The notes beneath the pieces are model-generated. The model was not told where the DNA came from and did not search any database. It saw only the letters and a program-made list of their open reading frames with translations. Shown one piece after another: positions 2,002 to 44,322 of a DNA stretch of 64,000 nucleotides; position 1 is the first letter of the stretch; every line of letters starts with the position of its first letter. This DNA comes from Candidatus Electrothrix rattekaaiensis (GTDB taxonomy: Bacteria > Desulfobacterota > Desulfobulbia > Desulfobulbales > Desulfobulbaceae). A program made the translations under genes and the position numbers. The stretch lies in contig JAVQMD010000001.1 in the NCBI GenBank assembly GCA_032595675.1, forward strand, positions 1,644,640 to 1,708,639. Direction: 5' to 3'.

Positions 2002-3006
2002 ATGTCCTTTTTACTTGTTCTTTTTTCGGCGTACCTCCTTGATCTCCTCTTAGGAGATCCACGTTGGTTGCCCCATCCAGTCCGTATCATCGGGCGAATC
2101 GCCTTACTGGCGGAATCCTGGACCAGAAAGTTTCCTGTGGACGCACATAATAGCGGTAGACTGGCTGTGCTCATAGTCCTGTGCAGCACCGGCGGAGCCT
2201 GTCTTGGCCTTTTTTTTTTCTTATCCCTTACACCGCAGCCTTTTTTTCTTTTGGGTGCTCTCCTTATCCTCTACACTACCATTGCAGCCCACGATCTGAT
2301 TCGCCACGCCCGTCAGGTTCTCACTGCACTTTCTCTTGATCTGGAGACGGCAAGAAAACGAGTGAGTATGATAGTAGGGAGAGATACAGAACAGCTGGAC
2401 GAAGCAGGCATTGTGCGAGCCTGCGTGGAGAGCGTTGCGGAAAACATGTCGGACGGTATTGTCGCGCCGCTCTTCTGGGCAACAACAGGAGCCGCTTGCG
2501 GGCAATACTTCAACGGAAATCCTGCTATCTGGGGAACAACAGCGGCCATGCTGTATAAGGCTGCCAACACTATGGACTCTATGTTCGGGTATAAAAACGA
2601 ACGATATCTCCAATTTGGTTCCTGTGCAGCCCGACTTGATGATGTGATCAATTTTCTTCCTGCCCGGATTTCAGGGCTATCCCTTGTTCTTGCAGCCTTG
2701 CTTTGCCGTCCTGCCTGCCGTTCTGATATGAAAAATAGTTTTCGGGTACTTGTAAGAGATAAGCAGCAGCATAGCAGCCCTAATTCAGGCTGGCCAGAAG
2801 CGGCTATGGCTGGTGCTCTTGGAATTCAGCTTGGCGGCGAGTCATCATATTTTGGCAAACCGGCTGAAAAACCAACCATTGGCGACTCTTTTGTATCGCC
2901 CCAAGCGCACCATATTTTCCAAGCCAACACCTTGGTCTTGACCGCCTCATCACTCTGTCTCTTTTGTTTCGGTGCCGTGTATCTACTGATATTATTTTAT
3001 ATTTAA
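2002..3006 (+). CDS. cbiB: Adenosylcobinamide-phosphate synthase CbiB/CobD
   Basis: This polytopic inner-membrane enzyme attaches the aminopropanol linker to adenosylcobyric acid in cobamide synthesis. Family marks are LLDLLLGDPRWLPHPV at the N-terminus, a central ESVAENMSDGIVAP (about residues 148-161), AANTMDSMFGY, and the C-terminal segment LGGESSYFGK. The length of about 334 residues is normal. I prefer the ATG at 2002, because family members begin just before the LLDLLLGDP segment; a GTG at 1984 overlapping cutA is the alternative. No other cobamide genes are in the window. Confidence 0.93.
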   Translation: MSFLLVLFSAYLLDLLLGDPRWLPHPVRIIGRIALLAESWTRKFPVDAHNSGRLAVLIVLCSTGGACLGLFFFLSLTPQPFFLLGALLILYTTIAAHDLIRHARQVLTALSLDLETARKRVSMIVGRDTEQLDEAGIVRACVESVAENMSDGIVAPLFWATTGAACGQYFNGNPAIWGTTAAMLYKAANTMDSMFGYKNERYLQFGSCAARLDDVINFLPARISGLSLVLAALLCRPACRSDMKNSFRVLVRDKQQHSSPNSGWPEAAMAGALGIQLGGESSYFGKPAEKPTIGDSFVSPQAHHIFQANTLVLTASSLCLFCFGAVYLLILFYI

Positions 3007-3286
3007 TTACAAGATATTGCAAATTCTCCGCAAAAAACAGGAGAACTCTATAAAGATTTTCTCGAATCTCTCCGCATCTTCTTGTAATGAAAATTATTTT
3101 CTGTTATAATCATTTAGTTAAATTACCTTTAGCAATCAAGTGGTTACAGAAAAGATAAAACTTTGTCGTCTTCATAGAACGATCACCAATCCCAACATCT
3201 TAACCAATAAATTTAATTATATATCAAGCACCCGTCAACACGGGCTGATACAATCTACAATCATAAATAATATTGTGGAGGACCGT

Positions 3287-3748
3287 ATGTATTTACACGT
3301 TACCATTTCAGCTGCTGTTCTTCTTTATTTCAGCATGTTGCCTTTTTCAGCGGCTCATGCGCTTGCTGAACATCTTGAGACTCAAATGGCCGGGAACTAT
3401 TGCACTATTCCCTTGCCAGACCCGAAACAACTCTCCGAAGATGAAAAAGAATGGTTTACAACCTTTCAGGAAGGCACTTTCTATGTTCAGGGTTGGAAAG
3501 AGATCACTTCGGAAATTCTTGGGAAAATACAACAAGAAAACAAGAGGGAAGAACTGCAACGTTCCTTGAATTACCTCGGAATACGGATTGGTTGCGAGTG
3601 GAGCAAGAATAACGACGTCAGAAAAATCAATACGGATATGTTGGAGCAATGGGGATCTGAATTACAAAAGGCCGCAGAGGACAACCCAGATAAACTGCCG
3701 ATTGTGATTGCGGATATCCGACAAAAGGTGTTTGAGCTTGTGGAATAG
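3287..3748 (+). CDS. Small secreted hypothetical protein
   Basis: The start at 3287 follows GTGGAGG by five bases and opens directly with a cleavable signal peptide (a hydrophobic stretch ending SAAHALA at about residue 25). A longer reading from 3140 has no ribosome site and no sensible N-terminus. The mature part of about 128 residues is acidic, mostly helical, with two cysteines (about residues 39 and 102) that could pair in the periplasm. I do not recognise the family. The 280 bases before it are AT-rich and show no clear feature. Confidence 0.65.
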   Translation: MYLHVTISAAVLLYFSMLPFSAAHALAEHLETQMAGNYCTIPLPDPKQLSEDEKEWFTTFQEGTFYVQGWKEITSEILGKIQQENKREELQRSLNYLGIRIGCEWSKNNDVRKINTDMLEQWGSELQKAAEDNPDKLPIVIADIRQKVFELVE

Positions 3749-3824
3749 CTGCTGGGCTGCTGGTTTTCTCCACGAAAATCTACAAAAAAAATGAGGGTGC
3801 TTCATCAAACATGGTGCCTATAAT

Positions 3825-4739
3825 TTGACCGAAAAAAACCAAGAAAACAAACTGGTGGACAAAATCGGTGCTCCGCTGATATTGACTGCACACACAGAGC
3901 GGTCAGCGGAAAGAGACCAGGAAGACAGCGAATTTATACCTGTCATTATTAAACGAACCGATGAAGGAGCTAGGCATCCTGATGATATTCTGGAAAAAGC
4001 CATTACAGAAGGCATGGAACAGATTCAGCGGCCTTTTCTCTCCCTGGCCCTTTCCTCTGTAGCGGCAGCTCTTATTCTCAGTTTTTCGGTCATGGCGGTT
4101 GCTGTCATGTCCACCCTGATGATTGACCTGCAACAGCCCCTGCTCGTCCGAGTGGCAATGGCTCTGGTCTACCCGCTGGGCTTCATTATCTGTATTATGA
4201 GCGGGACAGAACTCTTTACCGAGCATACGGCAACAGCAGTCTATCCTGTCCTTGAAGGCAAGGCAGGCTGTCGCCAGCTGCTTCGACTCTGGTCGATTGT
4301 CATTCTGGGAAATATTGTCGGTGCCATTGTCGGCGCACTTCTTCTCACCGGCACAGACCAAGTGATCCAGGCGGAAAAAGGGTATATTCTCATCGCGCAT
4401 CATCTTGTCCAATACGGTAATCTCGCGCTCCTGTTCAGTGCCGTCTTGGCTGGCTGGCTGATGGCCCTGGGAGGATGGCTGGTCCTGGCTACCACACCGG
4501 CCTTGAGCCAGATTGTCTGTATCTACATGGTCACCTTTCTTATCGGACTCGGCGGACTCCACCATTCTATTGCCGGATCTGTTGAAATGTTTACCGCACT
4601 CTTTATTTCCGATCAGTTTTCCCTGTTGCAAGGCATACGTTTTATCGGTCTTGCCATGCTGGGAAACCTCATCGGCGGCAGTTTTTTTGTGGCCACCCTT
4701 AATTACGGCCATATCCGAAAGACGCAGGAAATTTCATAA
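3825..4739 (+). CDS. Formate/nitrite transporter (FNT) family channel
   Basis: A TTG start is used; no in-frame ATG lies before the conserved region. The first 70 residues are soluble and charged. About six membrane helices follow, with FNT marks: the re-entrant region containing the LFTEHTA segment (about residues 127-133), GNIVGAIVGA, and GLGGLHHSIAGSVEMF with the central-pore histidine area (about 243-258). FNT proteins form pentamers that pass formate, nitrite, hydrosulfide or similar monovalent anions. In a sulfur-cycling anaerobe, formate or HS- are reasonable substrates, but the sequence alone does not decide. The gene ends 21 bases before the ferredoxin gene. Confidence 0.85.
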   Translation: MTEKNQENKLVDKIGAPLILTAHTERSAERDQEDSEFIPVIIKRTDEGARHPDDILEKAITEGMEQIQRPFLSLALSSVAAALILSFSVMAVAVMSTLMIDLQQPLLVRVAMALVYPLGFIICIMSGTELFTEHTATAVYPVLEGKAGCRQLLRLWSIVILGNIVGAIVGALLLTGTDQVIQAEKGYILIAHHLVQYGNLALLFSAVLAGWLMALGGWLVLATTPALSQIVCIYMVTFLIGLGGLHHSIAGSVEMFTALFISDQFSLLQGIRFIGLAMLGNLIGGSFFVATLNYGHIRKTQEIS

Positions 4740-4760
4740 CGCAGCAGAACGGAGAAGAAT

Positions 4761-4952
4761 ATGGCTGAAATTATTATTGATACCTATCAGTGCAGTGGCT
4801 GCGAGACTTGCGCGGAAATGTGCCCGGATGTCTTTCGCATAGACGAAGTCACTGAAAAGGCAGCCTTAGTGAGTGTCTCGCCCCAAGTTACCGATGCTGT
4901 TCGTCAGGTAGCGGCTTTTTGCCCGGAAAAATGTATTGAAATTTTGGAATGA
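4761..4952 (+). CDS. Small [4Fe-4S] ferredoxin
   Basis: This 63-residue protein has the CxxCxxC...CP arrangement (Cys11, Cys14, Cys17, with Cys21 before Pro) and a distal FCPEKC near the C-terminus. That fits a single [4Fe-4S] cluster ferredoxin; the extra cysteines could form the disulfide known in archaeal and Desulfovibrio ferredoxins. It acts as a soluble one-electron carrier. A purine-rich GGAGAAGA site precedes the ATG. The 193-base gap after it, before rseP, shows no feature I can name. Confidence 0.9.
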   Translation: MAEIIIDTYQCSGCETCAEMCPDVFRIDEVTEKAALVSVSPQVTDAVRQVAAFCPEKCIEILE

Positions 4953-5145
4953 CTTTTGTCGGCATTTTTGCCTATAATCTGTTCATAATCCTTTTGTACT
5001 CCTTTTCCAGGCAGCTCAGAGGAATGAAGCTTGTCCGACCTTTGGGCCGGAAGAGCACATTGAAGCAAAGCAGGGTATCCGCCCCAGCACCACGCAATAA
5101 CCCGCAATAATCGACAAATAATCCGCAGGAATCCTCTCATCACAT

Positions 5146-6231
5146 ATGAATTCATTACTCTCTTTTATTCTTGTCCTCGGCGTTCTGATCTTTGTTCATG
5201 AACTCGGGCATTTTCTCCTTGCCAAACTCTTCGGAGTCCGAGTGCTGAAATTCTCCCTGGGCTTTGGTAATAAGCTGATCAGCAAAAAATGGGGCGACAC
5301 CGAATACATGATTTCCGCCTTTCCTCTGGGCGGTTATGTAAAGATGTTCGGCGAGCAACCGGATGAAAAGATTGCCGAAGAAGAACAGGCTGTTTCCTTT
5401 ACCCATAAAACCGTGTGGCAACGTTTCGGCATTGTTCTTGCCGGACCTCTCTTTAATCTTTTTTTTGCCGTGTTTCTTTTTTGGCTCATGTTCACCTTTG
5501 CTGGTCTACCGGATTTTGTAGAATCAGGCCTTATCGGTAAAGTCTCCCCTGGCTCGGTTGCTGAAAAAGCAGGTTTGCAAGATGGCGATCTCATCTTATC
5601 CATTGATGATCAAAAGATCACGACCTGGACCCAGGTTTCTGATTCGATCAGGGATTCAGGAGGCAAGGAGGTGCAGATTGTTGTTCAGCGAGAGCAGAAA
5701 ACCCTGACCATCGCGGCAACACCTGCTATGGATAAGGTGAAAAATCTCTTTGGCGAAGAGGTCGGTGAACGCTATCTCTTGGGAATCAGTCGCTCGGAAC
5801 AGCTGGAGTACAAAAAAACCTCTTTTTTTGAAGCGATCAAATACGCGTTTCTTCAGACGTGGAATCTCATCGTGCTGACCCTCTTGGGGATCGTCAAAAT
5901 TATTCAGCAGGTCGTTCCTGCATCTGAGCTGGGCGGACCCATCCGCATTGCGGAACTTGCAGGCGAGCAATGGGAGGCTGGCCTGATGCAGTTGCTTCAT
6001 TTTACCGGCCTGCTTTCTATTAATTTGGGCGTGCTCAATCTTCTTCCGATCCCGGTGCTGGACGGCGGACATCTTGTTTTTCTCAGCATCGAGGCGGTTC
6101 GAGGGAAACCGCTTAGTGAGCAGGCCGTGATCTGGGCCCAAAAAGTCGGCATTGCATTGCTTGGTTCCTTGATGATCTTTGTCTTTTATAATGACATCGC
6201 TCGACTTGTCCGGCAATGGCTGGCCGGTTGA
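5146..6231 (+). CDS. rseP: Site-2 intramembrane metalloprotease RseP
   Basis: The zinc motif HELGH is at residues 18-22 in the first membrane helix, and NLLPIPVLDGGHL (about 300-312) supplies the third ligand, as in M50 proteases. A single PDZ domain spans about residues 115-195 (E. coli RseP has two). About 361 residues and four membrane segments fit the deltaproteobacterial form. RseP cuts anti-sigma factors and remnant signal peptides inside the inner membrane. Many relatives have dxr immediately upstream, but here it is absent and a 193-base non-coding gap precedes the gene. Confidence 0.94.
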   Translation: MNSLLSFILVLGVLIFVHELGHFLLAKLFGVRVLKFSLGFGNKLISKKWGDTEYMISAFPLGGYVKMFGEQPDEKIAEEEQAVSFTHKTVWQRFGIVLAGPLFNLFFAVFLFWLMFTFAGLPDFVESGLIGKVSPGSVAEKAGLQDGDLILSIDDQKITTWTQVSDSIRDSGGKEVQIVVQREQKTLTIAATPAMDKVKNLFGEEVGERYLLGISRSEQLEYKKTSFFEAIKYAFLQTWNLIVLTLLGIVKIIQQVVPASELGGPIRIAELAGEQWEAGLMQLLHFTGLLSINLGVLNLLPIPVLDGGHLVFLSIEAVRGKPLSEQAVIWAQKVGIALLGSLMIFVFYNDIARLVRQWLAG

Positions 6232-14843: not shown

Positions 14844-15027
14844 GATTCATGATAGGTATCACGGCAGATTCATGATAGGTATCACGGCAGATTCATGATG
14901 GGTATCACGGCAGATTCATGATGAGTATCACGGCAGATTCATGATGAGTATCACGGCAGATTCATGATGAGTATCACGACAGATTCATGATACGTATCAC
15001 GACTGATTCGCGTCGGGTATCACGACA
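14844..15027. repeat. Minisatellite, eight 23-bp units
   Basis: Eight head-to-tail copies of a 23-base unit beginning GATTCATGATAGGTATCACG run from 14844. The first six are nearly identical, the seventh and eighth diverge. Each unit contains the palindrome TGATA-nn-TATCA. The array ends 25 bases before the leader-distal end of the CRISPR array. The other bases between 14719 and 15052 show nothing I can name. Confidence 0.9.
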
Positions 15028-15052: not shown

Positions 15053-17280
15053 ATTTCAATCCACGCCCCCGTGAGGGGGCGACCAACAAGATTCAATAAT
15101 CCACCAATACCTGTCAAGTTTCAATCCACGCCCCCGTGAGGGGGCGACATGGTCCCTTGGTACGGGACATGCACGGTCTCGTTTCAATCCACGCCCCCGT
15201 GAGGGGGCGACAACCGACCCGCTTTTATTCTCCGCGCTTGCGCGGGTTTCAATCCACGCCCCCGTGAGGGGGCGACCGACCATGCCCCAAGCACGGGGCA
15301 TATGGTGGGTTTCAATCCACGCCCCCGTGAGGGGGCGACCTCCAACGCAATCAGCCGTTCCCGATCAAAAGCTGTTTCAATCCACGCCCCCGTGAGGGGG
15401 CGACAAACGTCGGCCTCTGCTTAACCTTACTCCTTTTAGTTTCAATCCACGCCCCCGTGAGGGGGCGACGGGAAAAAGAAATTTATCGACGAATCCACAG
15501 GAGAGGTTTCAATCCACGCCCCCGTGAGGGGGCGACAAATTAAAAGGTTTGCTTTCCATGAGGATTACTCTGTTTCAATCCACGCCCCCGTGAGGGGGCG
15601 ACCCCAAGTGCAAAATATCCAAGGCTATATATCAAGTGTTTCAATCCACGCCCCCGTGAGGGGGCGACAGGCACCCTGTTGCTGATTACCCTATACCGCC
15701 TGTTTCAATCCACGCCCCCGTGAGGGGGCGACGTGTTAAAGGGCTATCTGCGACATAACTGGGATGTGTTTCAATCCACGCCCCCGTGAGGGGGCGACGA
15801 CGTAAAAGGAGTCGCTGATAACTCAGAGTTTCGTTTCAATCCACGCCCCCGTGAGGGGGCGACGGGAAAAAGAAATTTATCGACGAATCCACAGGAGAGG
15901 TTTCAATCCACGCCCCCGTGAGGGGGCGACAAATTAAAAGGTTTGCTTTCCATGAGGATTACTCTGTTTCAATCCACGCCCCCGTGAGGGGCGACCCCAG
16001 TGCAAAATATCCAAGGCTATATATCAAGTGTTTCAATCCACGCCCCCGTGAGGGGGCGACAGGCACCCTGTTGCTGATTACCCTATACCGCCTGTTTCAA
16101 TCCACGCCCCCGTGAGGGGGCGACGTGTTAAAGGGCTATCTGCGACATAACTGGGATGTGTTTCAATCCACGCCCCCGTGAGGGGCGACGACGTAAAGGA
16201 GTCGCTGATAACTCAGAGTTTCGTTTCAATCCACGCCCCCGTGAGGGGCGACGGGAAAAGAAATTTATCGACGAATCCACAGGAGAGGTTTCAATCCACG
16301 CCCCCGTGAGGGGGCGACAAATTAAAAGGTTTGCTTTCCATGAGGATTACTCTGTTTCAATCCACGCCCCCGTGAGGGGGCGACCCCAAGTGCAAAATAT
16401 CCAAGGCTATATATCAAGTGTTTCAATCCACGCCCCCGTGAGGGGGCGACAGGCACCCTGTTGCTGATTACCCTATACCGCCTGTTTCAATCCACGCCCC
16501 CGTGAGGGCGACGTGTTAAAGGGCTATCTGCGACATAACTGGGATGTGTACCACGCCGTGCGCGATACGGTTCTTCAATCCACGCCCCCGTGAGGGGCGA
16601 CAATTTAACACCTAGACCGGACGTAAAAGGAGTCGCTGATAACTCAGAGTTTCGTTTCAATCCACGCCCCCGTGAGGGGGCGACAAGATTTTTATACCCA
16701 CCGTTGAGACCGGGAACGTTTCGTTTCAATCCACGCCCCCGTGAGGGGGCGACATCAAAGATTATCAAACTGATATCGGAGTGTCCGTTTCAATCCACGC
16801 CCCCGTGAGGGGGCGACCTCGGCACGGGATCAGTGACTTACTCAGACTGGATCGTTTCAATCCACGCCCCCGTGAGGGGGCGACATCCTCGCTCGATCTA
16901 CGCAACCTCACCCCCACGGATCGTTTCAATCCACGCCCCCGTGAGGGGGCGACCTAGGAGACGGGAGATTTGTTACCTTTTTCCGGGGTTTCAATCCACG
17001 CCCCCGTGAGGGGGCGACGTGGAGAATCGGAGACACGTAAGCATAGGCGGCTGTTTCAATCCACGCCCCCGTGAGGGGGCGACAACCTTTGCGAGCTTAT
17101 CCCACGCGACAACACGGACGTTTCAATCCACGCCCCCGTGAGGGGGCGACCTGTCGATTCTCTGGTGGCTGCTTCTGTTTCCGGGTTTCAATCCACGCCC
17201 CCGTGAGGGGGCGACCTAGGAGACGGGAGATTTGTTACCTTTTTCCGGGGTTTCAATCCACGCCCCCGTGAGGGGGCGAC
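15053..17280 (-). CRISPR. Type I-C CRISPR array 1 (about 34 repeats)
   Basis: About 34 copies of a 31-bp repeat (GTTTCAATCCACGCCCCCGT... ending GCGAC on the + strand) are separated by 32-37 base spacers. The sequence class is that of type I-C repeats, which are transcribed in the opposite sense (ending GGATTGAAAC), so the array should be read from the minus strand with its leader on the right. The distal first repeat begins with A rather than G. A block of six spacers occurs three times in tandem (from about 15470, 15864 and 16254). Several repeats in the second and third copies lack one or two G residues. An aberrant join lies at 16544-16622. The spacers at 16954-16987 and 17216-17249 are identical. 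Confidence 0.97.
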
Positions 17281-17452
17281 TGTCAAGCTGCAACCGACTG
17301 TTACCGCTCGACGAATTACTGCATTTGCGCGAACCGCATTTTTCGGACGCGATCGCAAAGAGCAAAAGATGCTCTTTTTCGTAAAAACCTCCTGATTTCA
17401 ATATGTGCGAACCTCCCGTATTTTTCTGTCTACTAGAGGTTCGCGCAACCAT
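17281..17452 (-). promoter_or_regulatory. CRISPR leader of array 1
   Basis: The roughly 170 bases to the right of the last repeat are nearly the same as those to the right of array 2 (39681-39851), including TTTTTCGGACGCG, GATGCTCTTTTTCGTAAAAA and an inverted repeat GCGAACCTC / GAGGTTCGC around a T-rich centre. This shared flank identifies the leader and fixes the array direction. It would hold the crRNA promoter and the adaptation anchoring sites. Confidence 0.85.
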
Positions 17453-17456
17453 TTTG

Positions 17457-17483
17457 GTAGGAGCGAGCGACGGGGTCGCCCAG
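17457..17483. repeat. GTAGGGGC-type palindromic element (variant)
   Basis: A short inverted repeat beginning GTAGGAGCGA and ending GGTCGCCCAG lies at the outer edge of leader 1. A closer consensus copy stands in the same place beside the relic leader at 40244-40268, so the leader and this element were probably duplicated together. Confidence 0.55.
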
Positions 17484-39120: not shown

Positions 39121-39680
39121 GTTTCAATCCACGCCCCCGTGAAGGGGGCGACGGGATGGGGTTACAAAATACGGTACAAACCCGGAAGTTTCAATCCACG
39201 CCCCCGTGAAGGGGGCGACGTCAGGGGCGTGGTGAATATCGAATCTGCGGTTGTTTCAATCCACGCCCCCGTGAAGGGGGCGACGTATAACAATCAGGTG
39301 TCTCAAGTTTCGGCACCGGTTTCAATCCACGCCCCCGTGAAGGGGGCGACAAATTGTTATATCATAACCTTTTGGTATAACGTGTTTCAATCCACGCCCC
39401 CGTGAAGGGGGCGACATTCACGCCACCGGTAGGGGGTTCAGGGGGTGAGTTTCAATCCACGCCCCCGTGAAGGGGGCGACTTTTTTTATGGAGCAAACAG
39501 ATGAGAGGTTTTGTTGTTTCAATCCACGCCCCCGTGAAGGGGGCGACATTTCAGGAAACATCATTCCTGAGCCTGAGTATGTTTCAATCCACGCCCCCGT
39601 GAAGGGGGCGACACAAGATTCTTCTAAGACAATTCCAGCATAGTTTTTGTTTCAATCCACGCCCCCGTGAAGGGGGCGAC
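39121..39680 (-). CRISPR. Type I-C CRISPR array 2 (9 repeats, 8 spacers)
   Basis: Nine repeats of 32 bp are identical to the array 1 repeat except for one extra A in the loop (GTGAAGGGGG instead of GTGAGGGGG). Spacers are 33-36 bases, all different from one another and from array 1. The leader is to the right and almost the same as that of array 1, so transcription runs on the minus strand, away from cas2. Starts are at 39121, 39188, 39253, 39319, 39384, 39449, 39516, 39581 and 39649. Confidence 0.97.
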
Positions 39681-39851
39681 TGTCGAACTGCAACGTACTG
39701 TTACGGCTCGACGAAATACTACATTTGCGCGAACCGCATTTTTCGGACGCGGTCGCAAAGAACAAAACATGCTCTTTTTCGTAAAAACCTCCTGATTTCA
39801 ATATGTGCGAACCTCCCGTGTTTTTCTGTCTGTTAGGGGTTCGCGCAAGCG
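39681..39851 (-). promoter_or_regulatory. CRISPR leader of array 2
   Basis: This flank matches the one of array 1 over about 170 bases with few changes. It ends abruptly after GCGCAAGCG (39851), where array 1 continues into the palindromic element; the continuation is found instead at 40237 beside the relic leader. Confidence 0.85.
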
Positions 39852-39949
39852 TTTTCGGGTAATATTTCGTAGCAATCGGATAACAGGTACTGTATTTCCA
39901 CAATATCATGTATCCTTTTCCCTGACAACCGTTACCCGCAGGTGCAACA

Positions 39950-39975
39950 GTTTCAATCCACGCCCCGGTGAAGGG
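39950..39975 (-). repeat. Degenerate orphan CRISPR repeat
   Basis: The 26 bases match the array 2 repeat from GTTTCAATCCACGCCCC to GTGAAGGG with one C-to-G change, and lack the last GGCGAC. It stands alone, 99 bases outside leader 2, and appears to be what is left of an older array. Confidence 0.8.
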
Positions 39976-39990
39976 AACGGCGGCGATGAA

Positions 39991-40128
39991 ACGAATGCAT
40001 GTATTTGACAGGCACGAATGCATGTATTTGACAGGCACGAATGCATGCATTTGACAGGCACGAATGCATGCATTTGATCGGCACGAATGCATGCAATCGT
40101 TCGGACCGCAAGCACGCAATCGATCAGA
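39991..40128. repeat. Minisatellite, about five to six 23-bp units
   Basis: Units start ACGAATGCATGTATTTGACA at 39991, 40014, 40037, 40060 and 40083, with a sixth decayed unit to 40128. Each contains the palindrome ATGCAT. The period is the same 23 bases as the minisatellite beside array 1, but the sequence differs. It occupies the place where spacers of a relic array would be. Confidence 0.87.
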
Positions 40129-40180: not shown

Positions 40181-40237
40181 GTTTCAATATGTGCGAACCT
40201 CCCGTGTTTTTCTGTCTGTTAGGGGTTCGCGCAAGCG
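40181..40237 (-). promoter_or_regulatory. Relic CRISPR leader fragment
   Basis: The 56 bases 40182-40237 are identical to 39796-39851 at the outer end of leader 2 (TTTCAATATGTGCGAACCTC ... GCGCAAGCG). They are followed by the GTAGGGGC palindrome as in leader 1. The relic leader, decayed repeat and minisatellite form a disrupted leader-array unit between cas2 and the working array. Confidence 0.8.
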
Positions 40238-40243
40238 GTTCTG

Positions 40244-40268
40244 GTAGGGGCGACCGGCGGTCGCCCAG
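40244..40268. repeat. GTAGGGGC-type palindromic element
   Basis: GTAGGGGCGACCGG followed by CGGTCGCCC makes a short hairpin of the kind scattered in deltaproteobacterial intergenic DNA. It flanks the relic leader. Confidence 0.6.
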
Positions 40269-40321: not shown

Positions 40322-40612
40322 TCAGACAATCAAGGTACCCTCCTGATCAATGCCCTCCTTGGCCCCGATATGCTCGACCCGGTGCTTCCAGTTGGACCCG
40401 AGAAAGTAAAAACGGAGGCTGTCCACATCCTTATCAATCTCCCTGATGAGCCGATCCCGCATCACCACCCATTTATCCGGCGGCACAATGCATTCAAACA
40501 CGGAATATTGGACCCGCTGACCGTAATTTTTACAGACCTTGGCAACCCGGCGCAGGCGTTTCGGTCCGGTTCTATCGCTTGTTTTCACATCGTAACTGAC
40601 CAGGACAAACAT
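40322..40612 (-). CDS. cas2: CRISPR-associated Cas2, type I-C
   Basis: A 96-residue ferredoxin-fold protein with the Cas2 start FVLVSYDVKT (the conserved Asp), RLRRVAKVCKNYGQRVQYSVFEC and the C-terminal basic/IG segment typical of I-C systems. Cas2 dimers bridge two Cas1 dimers in the spacer-integration complex. It is the last gene of the cas4-cas1-cas2 run and faces the leader of array 2. Unlike most I-C operons, it is separated from cas1 by 110 bases that contain two palindromic elements. Confidence 0.96.
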   Translation of the reverse strand: MFVLVSYDVKTSDRTGPKRLRRVAKVCKNYGQRVQYSVFECIVPPDKWVVMRDRLIREIDKDVDSLRFYFLGSNWKHRVEHIGAKEGIDQEGTLIV

Positions 40613-40636: not shown

Positions 40637-40724
40637 GTAGGGGCGAACCCCTGTGTTCGCCCATGTCCTGTTGGGTAGGGTCTTGCCCTTACTAACCGGG
40701 CAGGCACAGGGGCCTGCCCCTACT
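40637..40724. repeat. Two GTAGGGGC-type palindromes between cas2 and cas1
   Basis: One hairpin (GTAGGGGCGAACCCC / GTGTTCGCCC, 40637-40662) and a second in inverse orientation (GGGCAGGCACAGGGGCCTGC, 40698-40724) fill the cas1-cas2 gap. The second touches the cas1 stop codon. They are probably mobile palindromic repeats inserted into the operon. Confidence 0.65.
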
Positions 40725-41751
40725 AACGCCAGATTGCTGGCGGGTAGCCGTCCAGATCTCCCCGAAGAAAACGGGCCAGCAACAGGGCCTGGGTATGGAA
40801 AAACAGACCCAGCGGCATTTTCTCTTCCAAAAAAGGATGCAGGAGCACATCCTGTTTCCGCTCCTGATAGGCGGTCAGCAGAACTTTTCTCGCCTTATCC
40901 TTCATCCGCACTCCGCCGCTGTCACTGACCACAAAATCCTTGGCCTGCAACTGGCCCCGATTGATCAGGGAAAGGGCCATGCGATCAGCCATAGGGCGAA
41001 ATTCCTCCATCATATCCAGGGCCAGACTTGCCCGGCCCGGTCGATCCCGATGAAGAAACCCCACAGCCGGATCAAGGCCGGTGCATTCCAGGGCAGAGCG
41101 CACATCGTGCATAACCAGGGTGTAGAGAAAGGAGAGCAGGCAGTTGACCAGATCCAGGGGCGGTCTTCGGCTGCGTCGGTGAAAGAAAAAATCCTCTTTA
41201 TGCCGGATAATAAGATGATCGAAGACCCCGAAATAAACATGGGCACCATCGCCTTCCGTGCCCCGCACCTCATCCAGGGGCAGATCCCGGCCCAGGGATT
41301 TGAGCAGACCAGTGAGATGATTGGCCGCATTGCTCACCGCATCAGTATCCATTTTTTCCGGGTGATCCCGCATAGCCCGGTTCAGCAGAGCGCGGCAGTT
41401 GGCGATCTTGCCGTTGATAAAGGCCCGGGCCATGAGTGCGGAAAAATCCAGATCATCGGCCCGGCGATACTGCTCCCGTCGCAGCAGGACATTGCCGGAA
41501 ACCGGTCCCTGCACCCGTGCGAGAAAACGCCCGTATTCGGTCAGAAAACTGATCGTCACGTCCCGTTCCGCACAAAATCCCAGGAGAAACGGGCTGCATC
41601 CCACATTGCCGAAGCAGACAACCCCGTCCAGAGTATGGATGGGCAGGCGCAACCGGATCTTTTTTTCCACCCGCACAGCAACGGTTTCTCCTTCCTTGGC
41701 CAGATAGGCCCCTTGGGTGGTGACAAAGAGCGTGTTCAGATGTTTTTTCAT
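40723..41751 (-). CDS. cas1: CRISPR-associated Cas1 integrase, type I-C
   Basis: Cas1 integrates new spacers. The N-terminal beta domain (about 1-85) is followed by the helical catalytic domain with the metal ligands Glu166 (RGTEGDGAH), His234 (VGFLHRDRPGR) and an acidic residue in ALDMMEEFRP. The length of 342 is normal for subtype I-C. Its ATG overlaps the cas4 stop by four bases. All three catalytic residues are kept, so spacer acquisition should be possible. Confidence 0.97.
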   Translation of the reverse strand: MKKHLNTLFVTTQGAYLAKEGETVAVRVEKKIRLRLPIHTLDGVVCFGNVGCSPFLLGFCAERDVTISFLTEYGRFLARVQGPVSGNVLLRREQYRRADDLDFSALMARAFINGKIANCRALLNRAMRDHPEKMDTDAVSNAANHLTGLLKSLGRDLPLDEVRGTEGDGAHVYFGVFDHLIIRHKEDFFFHRRSRRPPLDLVNCLLSFLYTLVMHDVRSALECTGLDPAVGFLHRDRPGRASLALDMMEEFRPMADRMALSLINRGQLQAKDFVVSDSGGVRMKDKARKVLLTAYQERKQDVLLHPFLEEKMPLGLFFHTQALLLARFLRGDLDGYPPAIWR

Positions 41752-42457: not shown

Positions 42458-42619
42458 ATGTTTCGATGCGATATTGAAGAGCTTGAAGCTGATTTTTCCG
42501 CTATCATCGCCAAGGTGGAAGCAGGCGCGACCGTAACTGTTTATAAGGATGATGAACCGTTTGCCGAAATCAGACCCATTCAAACTCACATTGAGCGGGT
42601 TGTCTTTTTTGAAAAATAG
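42458..42619 (+). pseudogene. Phd/YefM-type antitoxin gene interrupted by the IS element
   Basis: The start is fixed by AGGAGG seven bases upstream. The first 40 residues (CDIEELEADFSAIIAKVEAGATVTVYKDDEPFAEIRPI) have the Phd/YefM DNA-binding layout. The following codons, up to the stop at 42619, run into the left inverted repeat of the IS and are foreign. A likely C-terminal continuation (ending ADDYLEEKVI) is found at 44323-44412, just after the right end of the IS. No toxin gene follows, so the module is dead or an orphan. Confidence 0.75.
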
Positions 42620-44322
42620 ATTAAAATTCACCATAATTCCATACTGTTCGCTGTAAACATCTTACAATACTGTAATAATGGAAAAATACTCGATTGAACG
42701 ACTTGATCATTTAGGCATAGTAGCCGGAACAATTAAAGATCTCGGGCTGGTAGAATTTATTGACTCCCACTTGGGCCATTATGAAAATGAAACTTTGTCC
42801 GCTGGGGAAACCGTAGCTGGAATGATATTGAACGGATTAGGTTTTTCCAATAAGCCCCTGTCATTGACCCCTTTATTTTTTCAAAACTGTCCTCTTTCTT
42901 TGCTGTTTAGGGACGGAGTGAATGCCGATGATTTTAATCGTTTCAAACTCGGGCGCGTCCTCGACCGTCTGCACAATTTTGGAACCGAAGCACTTTTCAG
43001 TCACATAGCTGTCGATGTCTGTGAAAAAGAAAACATTGACTTTCGTTTCAATCATTTGGATACAAGTGCTTTCAGTCTGACGGGTGAATATCTTCCAGAT
43101 GTTGATGAGCAGGCGATTTCTATCACCCACGGACATTCTAAAGACCATCGCCCTGATTTAAAACAGGTCATGCTTGAAATGATGGTTACTCAGGATGGCG
43201 GAATTCCAATTTTATTTAAAAGCTTAGACGGTAACAGTTCAGACAACACTGTCTTTAAGGATCGTGCGGCAGCTCTGATCAAAGAGTTTGAACAGTCTGA
43301 AACCCCTCGGTATATTGTAGCCGACTGCAAGATGTATACTCGGAAGAATGCCCCAAATTTAAGTAAACTGCTTTTTGTCACCCGTATTCCTCAAAATATA
43401 AAAGAAGTTGAAGAAGTTATCACTCAGGCCTTGGACAACACAGATGACTGGCTGGAATTCGATGGCGGACCTAACGTCAAGATGTTCAATGTGGAACATT
43501 ATGGAATCAGGCAGAGGTGGCATGTTGTTTCTTCTGAAGCTTCTCGTCAAAAATCCGTCAAAAAAATCGAAAAAAAGGCAAAAAAAGAAAGAGTTAAGAT
43601 CCAGAAAGCAATTTTTCACCTGCAAGCGGATCGCTTTCACTGCGTAGAAGATGCAATCAAAGCGGGCGAGAAATTAGCCGGCAGATGGAAGACCCACAGC
43701 CTATCATCGTATGAAATCATAGAACATAAACAGTACAAAGGGAAAGGACGTCCGAAAAAAGGTGAACAACCTGTCGCAATTGATTATCAGATAGTTTTAG
43801 CAGCACAGCTTGACAGCGACAAAGTGGATCGACTGCAAAAAGTAGCTGCATGTTATATCATAGGCACTAATATCCATGAAGAACATCTGTCTGTACAGGA
43901 AGTTCTCTATGCCTATAAGGAACAAAACCATGCGGAACAAGGGTTCCGTTTTCTGAAGGATCCTTTATTTTTTGCTTCCTCCTTATTTTTAAAAAAACCG
44001 TCTCGAATTTCTGCATTACTTATGGTCATGGTGCTTTCACTGTTAGTTTACGGGATAGCAGAAAGACGAATGCGTAATCGGTTAGCTGAACAGCAGGAAA
44101 CCGTTCCTAATCAAATTAACCAGCCTACTCAGACACCTACTTTGCGCTGGATTTTTCAGTTAATGGGCGGAATCAGTCGTATCAAAATCACTGTTGGAAA
44201 CCGGGTTAAATATGTTTTTGACGGTATTACCAAGCTGAAACAACGAATACTGTTACTCTTTGGTGATGGTGTGGCTAATATATATCAAATTTCATAAAAC
44301 TGCACCCGCTCAATGTGAGTTT
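42582..44322 (+). mobile_element. IS1634-family insertion sequence
   Basis: Perfect 19-bp inverted repeats (AAACTCACATTGAGCGGGT at 42582-42600 and its complement at 44304-44322) enclose a single intact transposase gene. The total length of about 1741 bp fits the family. The flanks TTCAAA and TTTAAA/TTAAAA are similar but not identical, so a target duplication is probable but not clean. The element splits an antitoxin gene, and no second copy is seen in the window. Confidence 0.9.
42678..44297 (+). CDS. IS1634-family DDE transposase
   Basis: The N-terminal DUF4277-like part (EKYSIERLDHLGIVAGTIKDLGL) is followed by a DDE core: DTSAFSLTGEY (first Asp, about residue 128), YIVADCKMYT (second Asp), and EQNHAEQGFRFLKDP (Glu region, about 420), with the hydrophobic SALLMVMVLSLLVYGIAE helix typical of IS1634/IS1549. 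The 539-residue frame is uninterrupted, so the enzyme may be active. It ends 25 bases before the right inverted repeat. Confidence 0.93.
   Translation: MEKYSIERLDHLGIVAGTIKDLGLVEFIDSHLGHYENETLSAGETVAGMILNGLGFSNKPLSLTPLFFQNCPLSLLFRDGVNADDFNRFKLGRVLDRLHNFGTEALFSHIAVDVCEKENIDFRFNHLDTSAFSLTGEYLPDVDEQAISITHGHSKDHRPDLKQVMLEMMVTQDGGIPILFKSLDGNSSDNTVFKDRAAALIKEFEQSETPRYIVADCKMYTRKNAPNLSKLLFVTRIPQNIKEVEEVITQALDNTDDWLEFDGGPNVKMFNVEHYGIRQRWHVVSSEASRQKSVKKIEKKAKKERVKIQKAIFHLQADRFHCVEDAIKAGEKLAGRWKTHSLSSYEIIEHKQYKGKGRPKKGEQPVAIDYQIVLAAQLDSDKVDRLQKVAACYIIGTNIHEEHLSVQEVLYAYKEQNHAEQGFRFLKDPLFFASSLFLKKPSRISALLMVMVLSLLVYGIAERRMRNRLAEQQETVPNQINQPTQTPTLRWIFQLMGGISRIKITVGNRVKYVFDGITKLKQRILLLFGDGVANIYQIS

What the first reader, a model, noticed from the sequence alone, without database searches (positions are those of the whole stretch)
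15439..16653. Six-spacer block tandemly triplicated in CRISPR array 1
The six spacers after the repeats at 15439-15768 recur in the same order after the repeats at 15833-16160 and again from 16223, with a period of 390-394 bases. Later copies differ only by single-base losses, mainly in G runs. Either a real segmental duplication by recombination between repeats, which raises crRNA dosage, or an assembly artefact.
Basis: seen in the sequence. Interest (0 to 1): 0.65.

Follow-up and report, generated by a model that had tools for sequence, protein, structure and literature searches.

The report
Repeated spacer block with assembly errors
A stretch of six CRISPR spacers appears three times in a row in this bacterial genome assembly; repeats of this kind are known, and the small differences between the copies look like sequencing errors, so the number of copies and any effect on immunity should not be trusted without the raw reads.

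Summary

The nine lost bases are all in homopolymer runs, with no substitutions, and all lie in copies 2 and 3. Five of their 12 repeats lost G's, against 0 of 31 elsewhere in the window's two arrays. About 37 kb of multi-copy transposon sequence in the same genome shows no indels. This is the pattern of an uncorrected long-read consensus, not of evolution.

Block duplication by exchange between CRISPR repeats is well documented, and a related closed genome has a clean three-spacer block duplicate. I favour a real but unstable block duplication whose copies 2-3 had little clean read support; a wholly false expansion is the main rival. No reads were available, so copy number is unresolved.

The system is type I-C (cas4-cas1 in the window, cas3-cas5c-cas8c-cas7 about 385 kb away). 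Nothing tested here supports a crRNA dosage effect, and no target was found for the six spacers. Ordinary; low interest.

The parts
15053..17280 (-). CRISPR array 1, type I-C-like 31-nt repeat, transcribed leftwards
   Evidence: repeat search and parsing; direction inferred from the repeat ending ATTGAAAC on the minus strand and from the leader shared with array 2
15439..15832 (-). six-spacer block, copy 1 (394 bp), all repeats and runs intact
15833..16222 (-). six-spacer block, copy 2 (390 bp), four single-base losses in runs
16223..16653 (-). six-spacer block, copy 3 (431 bp), five base losses in runs plus two insertions
16550..16573 (.). 24-bp insertion in copy 3, inside the start of the sixth repeat; probably spurious
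   Evidence: its 18-bp core has no other match in the genome with up to 3 mismatches; no exact viral match for its first 20 bases
16602..16619 (.). 18-bp insertion in copy 3, after the sixth repeat; probably spurious
   Evidence: only one 3-mismatch match elsewhere in the genome; no exact viral match
17281..17459 (-). probable leader of array 1
   Evidence: 163/181 identical to 39681-39861 beside array 2
39121..39680 (-). CRISPR array 2, nine 32-nt repeats (one base longer in the loop), all runs intact; control for array 1
40322..40612 (-). probable cas2 (96 aa)
   Evidence: position next to cas1 and length; not tested by HMM
40723..41751 (-). cas1, type I-C
   Evidence: TIGR03640, 503 bits; the only cas1 in the genome
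41748..42377 (-). cas4
   Evidence: TIGR00372, 147.7 bits

Best explanation
A six-spacer block in the interior (older) part of a type I-C array was tandemly duplicated by unequal exchange or replication slippage between identical CRISPR repeats. The resulting 394-bp direct copies are themselves prone to further exchange, so copy number probably varies between cells of the sequenced population. The assembly shows three copies, but copies 2 and 3 rest on few cleanly aligned reads: their consensus kept nanopore-type homopolymer deletions and, in copy 3, 42 bp of spurious inserted sequence. Shown: the three copies, the error pattern, and its restriction to copies 2 and 3. Inferred: the exchange event, the mixed copy number, and the read technology.
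For: Copies are in register with repeat boundaries and in the same order. Nine of nine changes are deletions in homopolymer runs with no substitutions; shortened G-runs in 5 of 12 repeats of copies 2-3 versus 0 of 31 elsewhere, p=8e-4. Multi-copy transposons of the same assembly show no gaps, so the damage is special to copies 2-3 and points to low effective read support there. The repeat between the two insertions keeps GGGG although the insertions make it unique, so accurate reads containing them probably do not exist (inference). A clean three-spacer block duplicate with a six-unit period exists in the array of a related closed genome (G014/L028). Block duplications and recombination or slippage between repeats are documented (PMC8047081; PMC11472070). 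A tandem duplication present in only part of a sequenced culture, giving conflicting assemblies, is documented for an rRNA locus of Streptococcus iniae (PMC9176272).
Against: No read data were available, so mixed copy number is not shown. No independent assembly of the strain was found. The two insertions are not explained in detail.
Confidence: 0.48

Rival explanations
1. The expansion is wholly an assembly artefact: the real genome has one block, and chimeric or misjoined long reads produced copies 2 and 3.
For: Copies 2-3 are the only damaged sequence found among the array repeats and multi-copy transposons examined; copy 3 contains inserted sequence without counterpart in the genome.
Against: A false overlap shifted by exactly six units, twice, is hard to obtain from reads whose spacers differ; loops in an assembly graph usually need at least one real tandem junction (general knowledge). 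Clean block duplicates occur in relatives.
Confidence: 0.3
2. The triplication is real and fixed at full read depth; the errors are residual long-read homopolymer errors that short-read polishing could not reach because reads went to the error-free copy.
For: This polishing failure is described for repeats in general (PMC8812927). Its prediction that every damaged position has an intact copy is met. The relative G012 shows shortened G/C runs in 11 of 41 repeats of one array.
Against: Dispersed multi-copy transposons in the same assembly are free of indels, including 762 A/T runs of four or more, although they hold only 8 G/C runs of five or more. It does not explain the 24- and 18-bp insertions or the uncorrected G-run between them, 92 bp from the next unique spacer.
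Confidence: 0.17
3. Old duplicated copies are truly decaying by slippage in G and A runs.
For: Redundant copies could tolerate decay, and slippage can shorten runs (general knowledge).
Against: No substitution in any copy, copy 1 and all other repeats untouched; only 45 of 1751 repeats vary in any way in related arrays.
Confidence: 0.03

Closest known systems
Spacer-block duplications in CRISPR arrays (reviewed in PMC8047081; quantified in PMC11472070, about 3% of spacers are duplication candidates)
   Same: Blocks of consecutive spacer-repeat units repeated in the same order, with boundaries at repeats, in the interior of the array
   Different: Here three copies of six spacers, with errors confined to two copies; base-level copies 2-3 not reliable
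Tandem duplications and triplications of single spacer units in Xanthomonas citri (PMC9504256)
   Same: Two to four tandem copies of repeat-spacer units
   Different: Single units there, a six-unit block here
Three-spacer direct block duplicate in closed relative G014 (L028 10029-10616)
   Same: Direct block duplicate with a six-unit period in an array of the same bacterial family
   Different: Two copies, three shared spacers with three others between, no errors
Residual homopolymer errors in repeats of polished nanopore assemblies (PMC8812927)
   Same: Deletions in runs, each with an intact copy elsewhere
   Different: Other multi-copy sequences of this assembly are clean; inserted sequence is also present

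Membership tests
Type I-C CRISPR-Cas system | cas8c, cas5c, cas7 and cas3 present | tested here: met
   TIGR01863 378.8 bits, TIGR01876 262.6 bits, TIGR02589 317.5 bits, TIGR01587 125.2 bits, all above cut-off, at C1:1294374-1301430
Type I-C CRISPR-Cas system | cas4 and cas1c next to an array with a repeat ending ATTGAAAC | tested here: met
   TIGR03640 and TIGR00372 above cut-off; array 2 at 39121-39680
Type I-C CRISPR-Cas system | Array 1 transcribed and processed by this system | not testable with these tools
   needs small-RNA data
Segmental duplication by exchange between CRISPR repeats | Copies in the same order and orientation, boundaries at repeats | tested here: met
Segmental duplication by exchange between CRISPR repeats | Reads spanning the copies | not testable with these tools
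Long-read consensus error | Deletions in homopolymer runs without substitutions | tested here: met
   9 of 9
Long-read consensus error | Restricted to part of the array rather than a property of the repeat | tested here: met
   5 of 12 versus 0 of 31, p=8e-4
Polishing failure in multi-copy sequence | Other multi-copy sequences of the assembly carry similar errors | tested here: not met
   17 pairwise comparisons of six transposon families without a gap; caveat, few G/C runs of five or more in them

The most novel reading that the evidence does not exclude
A genuinely fixed triplication of six spacers, kept because extra copies of these crRNAs are advantageous against a recurrent invader, with the differing third copy recording a further rearrangement (remnants of other spacers on both sides of a repeat).
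Probability: 0.07. Interest if true: 0.4.

Novelty: already known. Interest (0 to 1): 0.13.

Why it matters
It mainly matters as a caution: spacer counts and apparent repeat variants in long-read CRISPR arrays can come from a low-support consensus. If the duplication is real and variable in copy number, it would be a natural case for measuring rates of array exchange in an uncultured bacterium.

Tried and rejected
Insertions as copies of sequence elsewhere in the genome: none, apart from one 3-mismatch match. Insertions as viral sequence: no exact match; nothing beyond the CRISPR repeat in plasmids. Targets of the six spacers: only low-identity pieces in phage records; the 17-nt matches in viral contigs extend to only 22-23 of 34-35 bases (one cut off by a contig end), which is chance. 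Own genome and 56 relatives: no protospacer stood out from array matches (list truncated). Another assembly of the strain: none found. True mutational decay was rejected for lack of any substitution.

Full report
What is there. Array 1 runs from 15053 to 17280 with 31-nt repeats. Read on the minus strand the repeat ends in ATTGAAAC, as in type I-C. The leader lies on the right at 17281-17459 and is 163/181 identical to that of array 2. The leftmost repeat is altered, as terminal repeats often are. New spacers should therefore enter at the right, and the repeated block lies in the interior, older part.

The block. Six units at 15439-15832 recur at 15833-16222 and 16223-16653. The copies are 394, 390 and 431 bp. 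Without them the third copy is 389 bp.

The differences. Relative to copy 1, copies 2 and 3 lack nine bases: six G's in five repeats and three A's in spacers. There is no substitution. Three times a G loss is followed 11-13 bases later by an A loss. Five of the 12 repeats in copies 2-3 have shortened G-runs, against none of 31 repeats in copy 1, the unique parts of array 1 and array 2 (Fisher p=8e-4).

Controls. Six transposon families in the same genome, with 2-8 copies each, compared over 1.4-1.9 kb, differ by no gap at all. Over 36.7 kb and 860 runs of four or more bases none is shortened, against 7 of 34 such runs in copies 2-3 (p=6e-11). Those transposons hold only 8 G/C runs of five or more, so for G-runs the array repeats are the better control. 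In about 50 related I-C arrays 45 of 1751 repeats vary in any way. One closed relative, G012, shows shortened G/C runs in 11 of 41 repeats of one array, plus an embedded partial repeat, so such length variants do occur in other assembled arrays; that G012 is a long-read assembly is inferred from its single contig.

Reading. The differences are consensus errors, not evolution (confidence about 0.93). Whether the block is truly repeated is a separate question. For: the boundaries are exact, block duplicates are documented, and relative G014 has a clean one. Against: copies 2-3 are the only damaged sequence among the array repeats and transposons examined, and the repeat between the two insertions kept GGGG although the insertions make it unique, so accurate reads containing the insertions probably do not exist. 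Low effective read support over copies 2-3 explains both. That follows if copy number varies between cells, as seen for an rRNA tandem duplication in Streptococcus iniae (PMC9176272), or if the expansion is false. I favour the former (0.48 versus 0.30), because a false overlap shifted by exactly six units is hard to obtain from reads whose spacers differ. The third possibility, a fixed triplication left uncorrected by multi-mapping short reads (mechanism in PMC8812927), is weakened by the clean transposons and does not explain the insertions.

Function. The interference genes cas3, cas5c, cas8c and cas7 have open frames at C1:1294374-1301430, and cas4, cas1 and a probable cas2 are in the window, so the system could be active. 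No target of the six spacers was found. A dosage effect is possible but untested.

Source. The genome (4,477,327 bp, 5 contigs) is probably a cable bacterium of Candidatus Electrothrix. Contig 31 of G026, a genome of the same family, has the length and sequence of the Candidatus Electronema aureum record NQJD01000031.1. The same-genus genome G007 (5,089,909 bp) is close in size to Candidatus Electrothrix scaldis (5,089,971 bp, PMC10926707). This is inference. Published closed cable-bacterium genomes were made from nanopore reads polished with Illumina reads, which fits the error type.

Noticed in passing
window 42585-44320 and G000:C1:1302483-1304218 (L156:10484-12219): The I-C cas operon is split: cas3-cas5c-cas8c-cas7 lies about 385 kb from cas4-cas1, and each half borders an identical IS1634 copy, the two in opposite orientation. 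One pair of target duplications is swapped exactly (TTTAAA) and the other nearly (ATTCAA, one base offset), as expected from inversion between the two elements, or from an assembly misjoin at them.
   Followed up: partly
window 16954-16987 and 17216-17249: One spacer occurs twice, exactly, four units apart near the leader end, without errors.
   Followed up: no
window 14844-15009 and 39991-40095: A 23-bp minisatellite lies beside each array, with different unit sequences.
   Followed up: no
window 40182-40265 and 39949-39980: A partial third copy of the leader (63/66 to that of array 2) and a degenerate repeat near 39949, perhaps remnants of another array.
   Followed up: no
L029 (G012:C1:3188000-3200000) 2826-5512: Array in a closed relative with shortened G/C runs in 11 of 41 repeats, an embedded partial repeat and a two-spacer block occurring twice; probably similar assembly damage.
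   Followed up: partly
L025 and L026 (Candidatus Electronema aureum NQJD01000031.1): A very long I-C array of about 395 repeats fills most of a 28.9-kb contig beside cas1, with almost no repeat variants.
   Followed up: no
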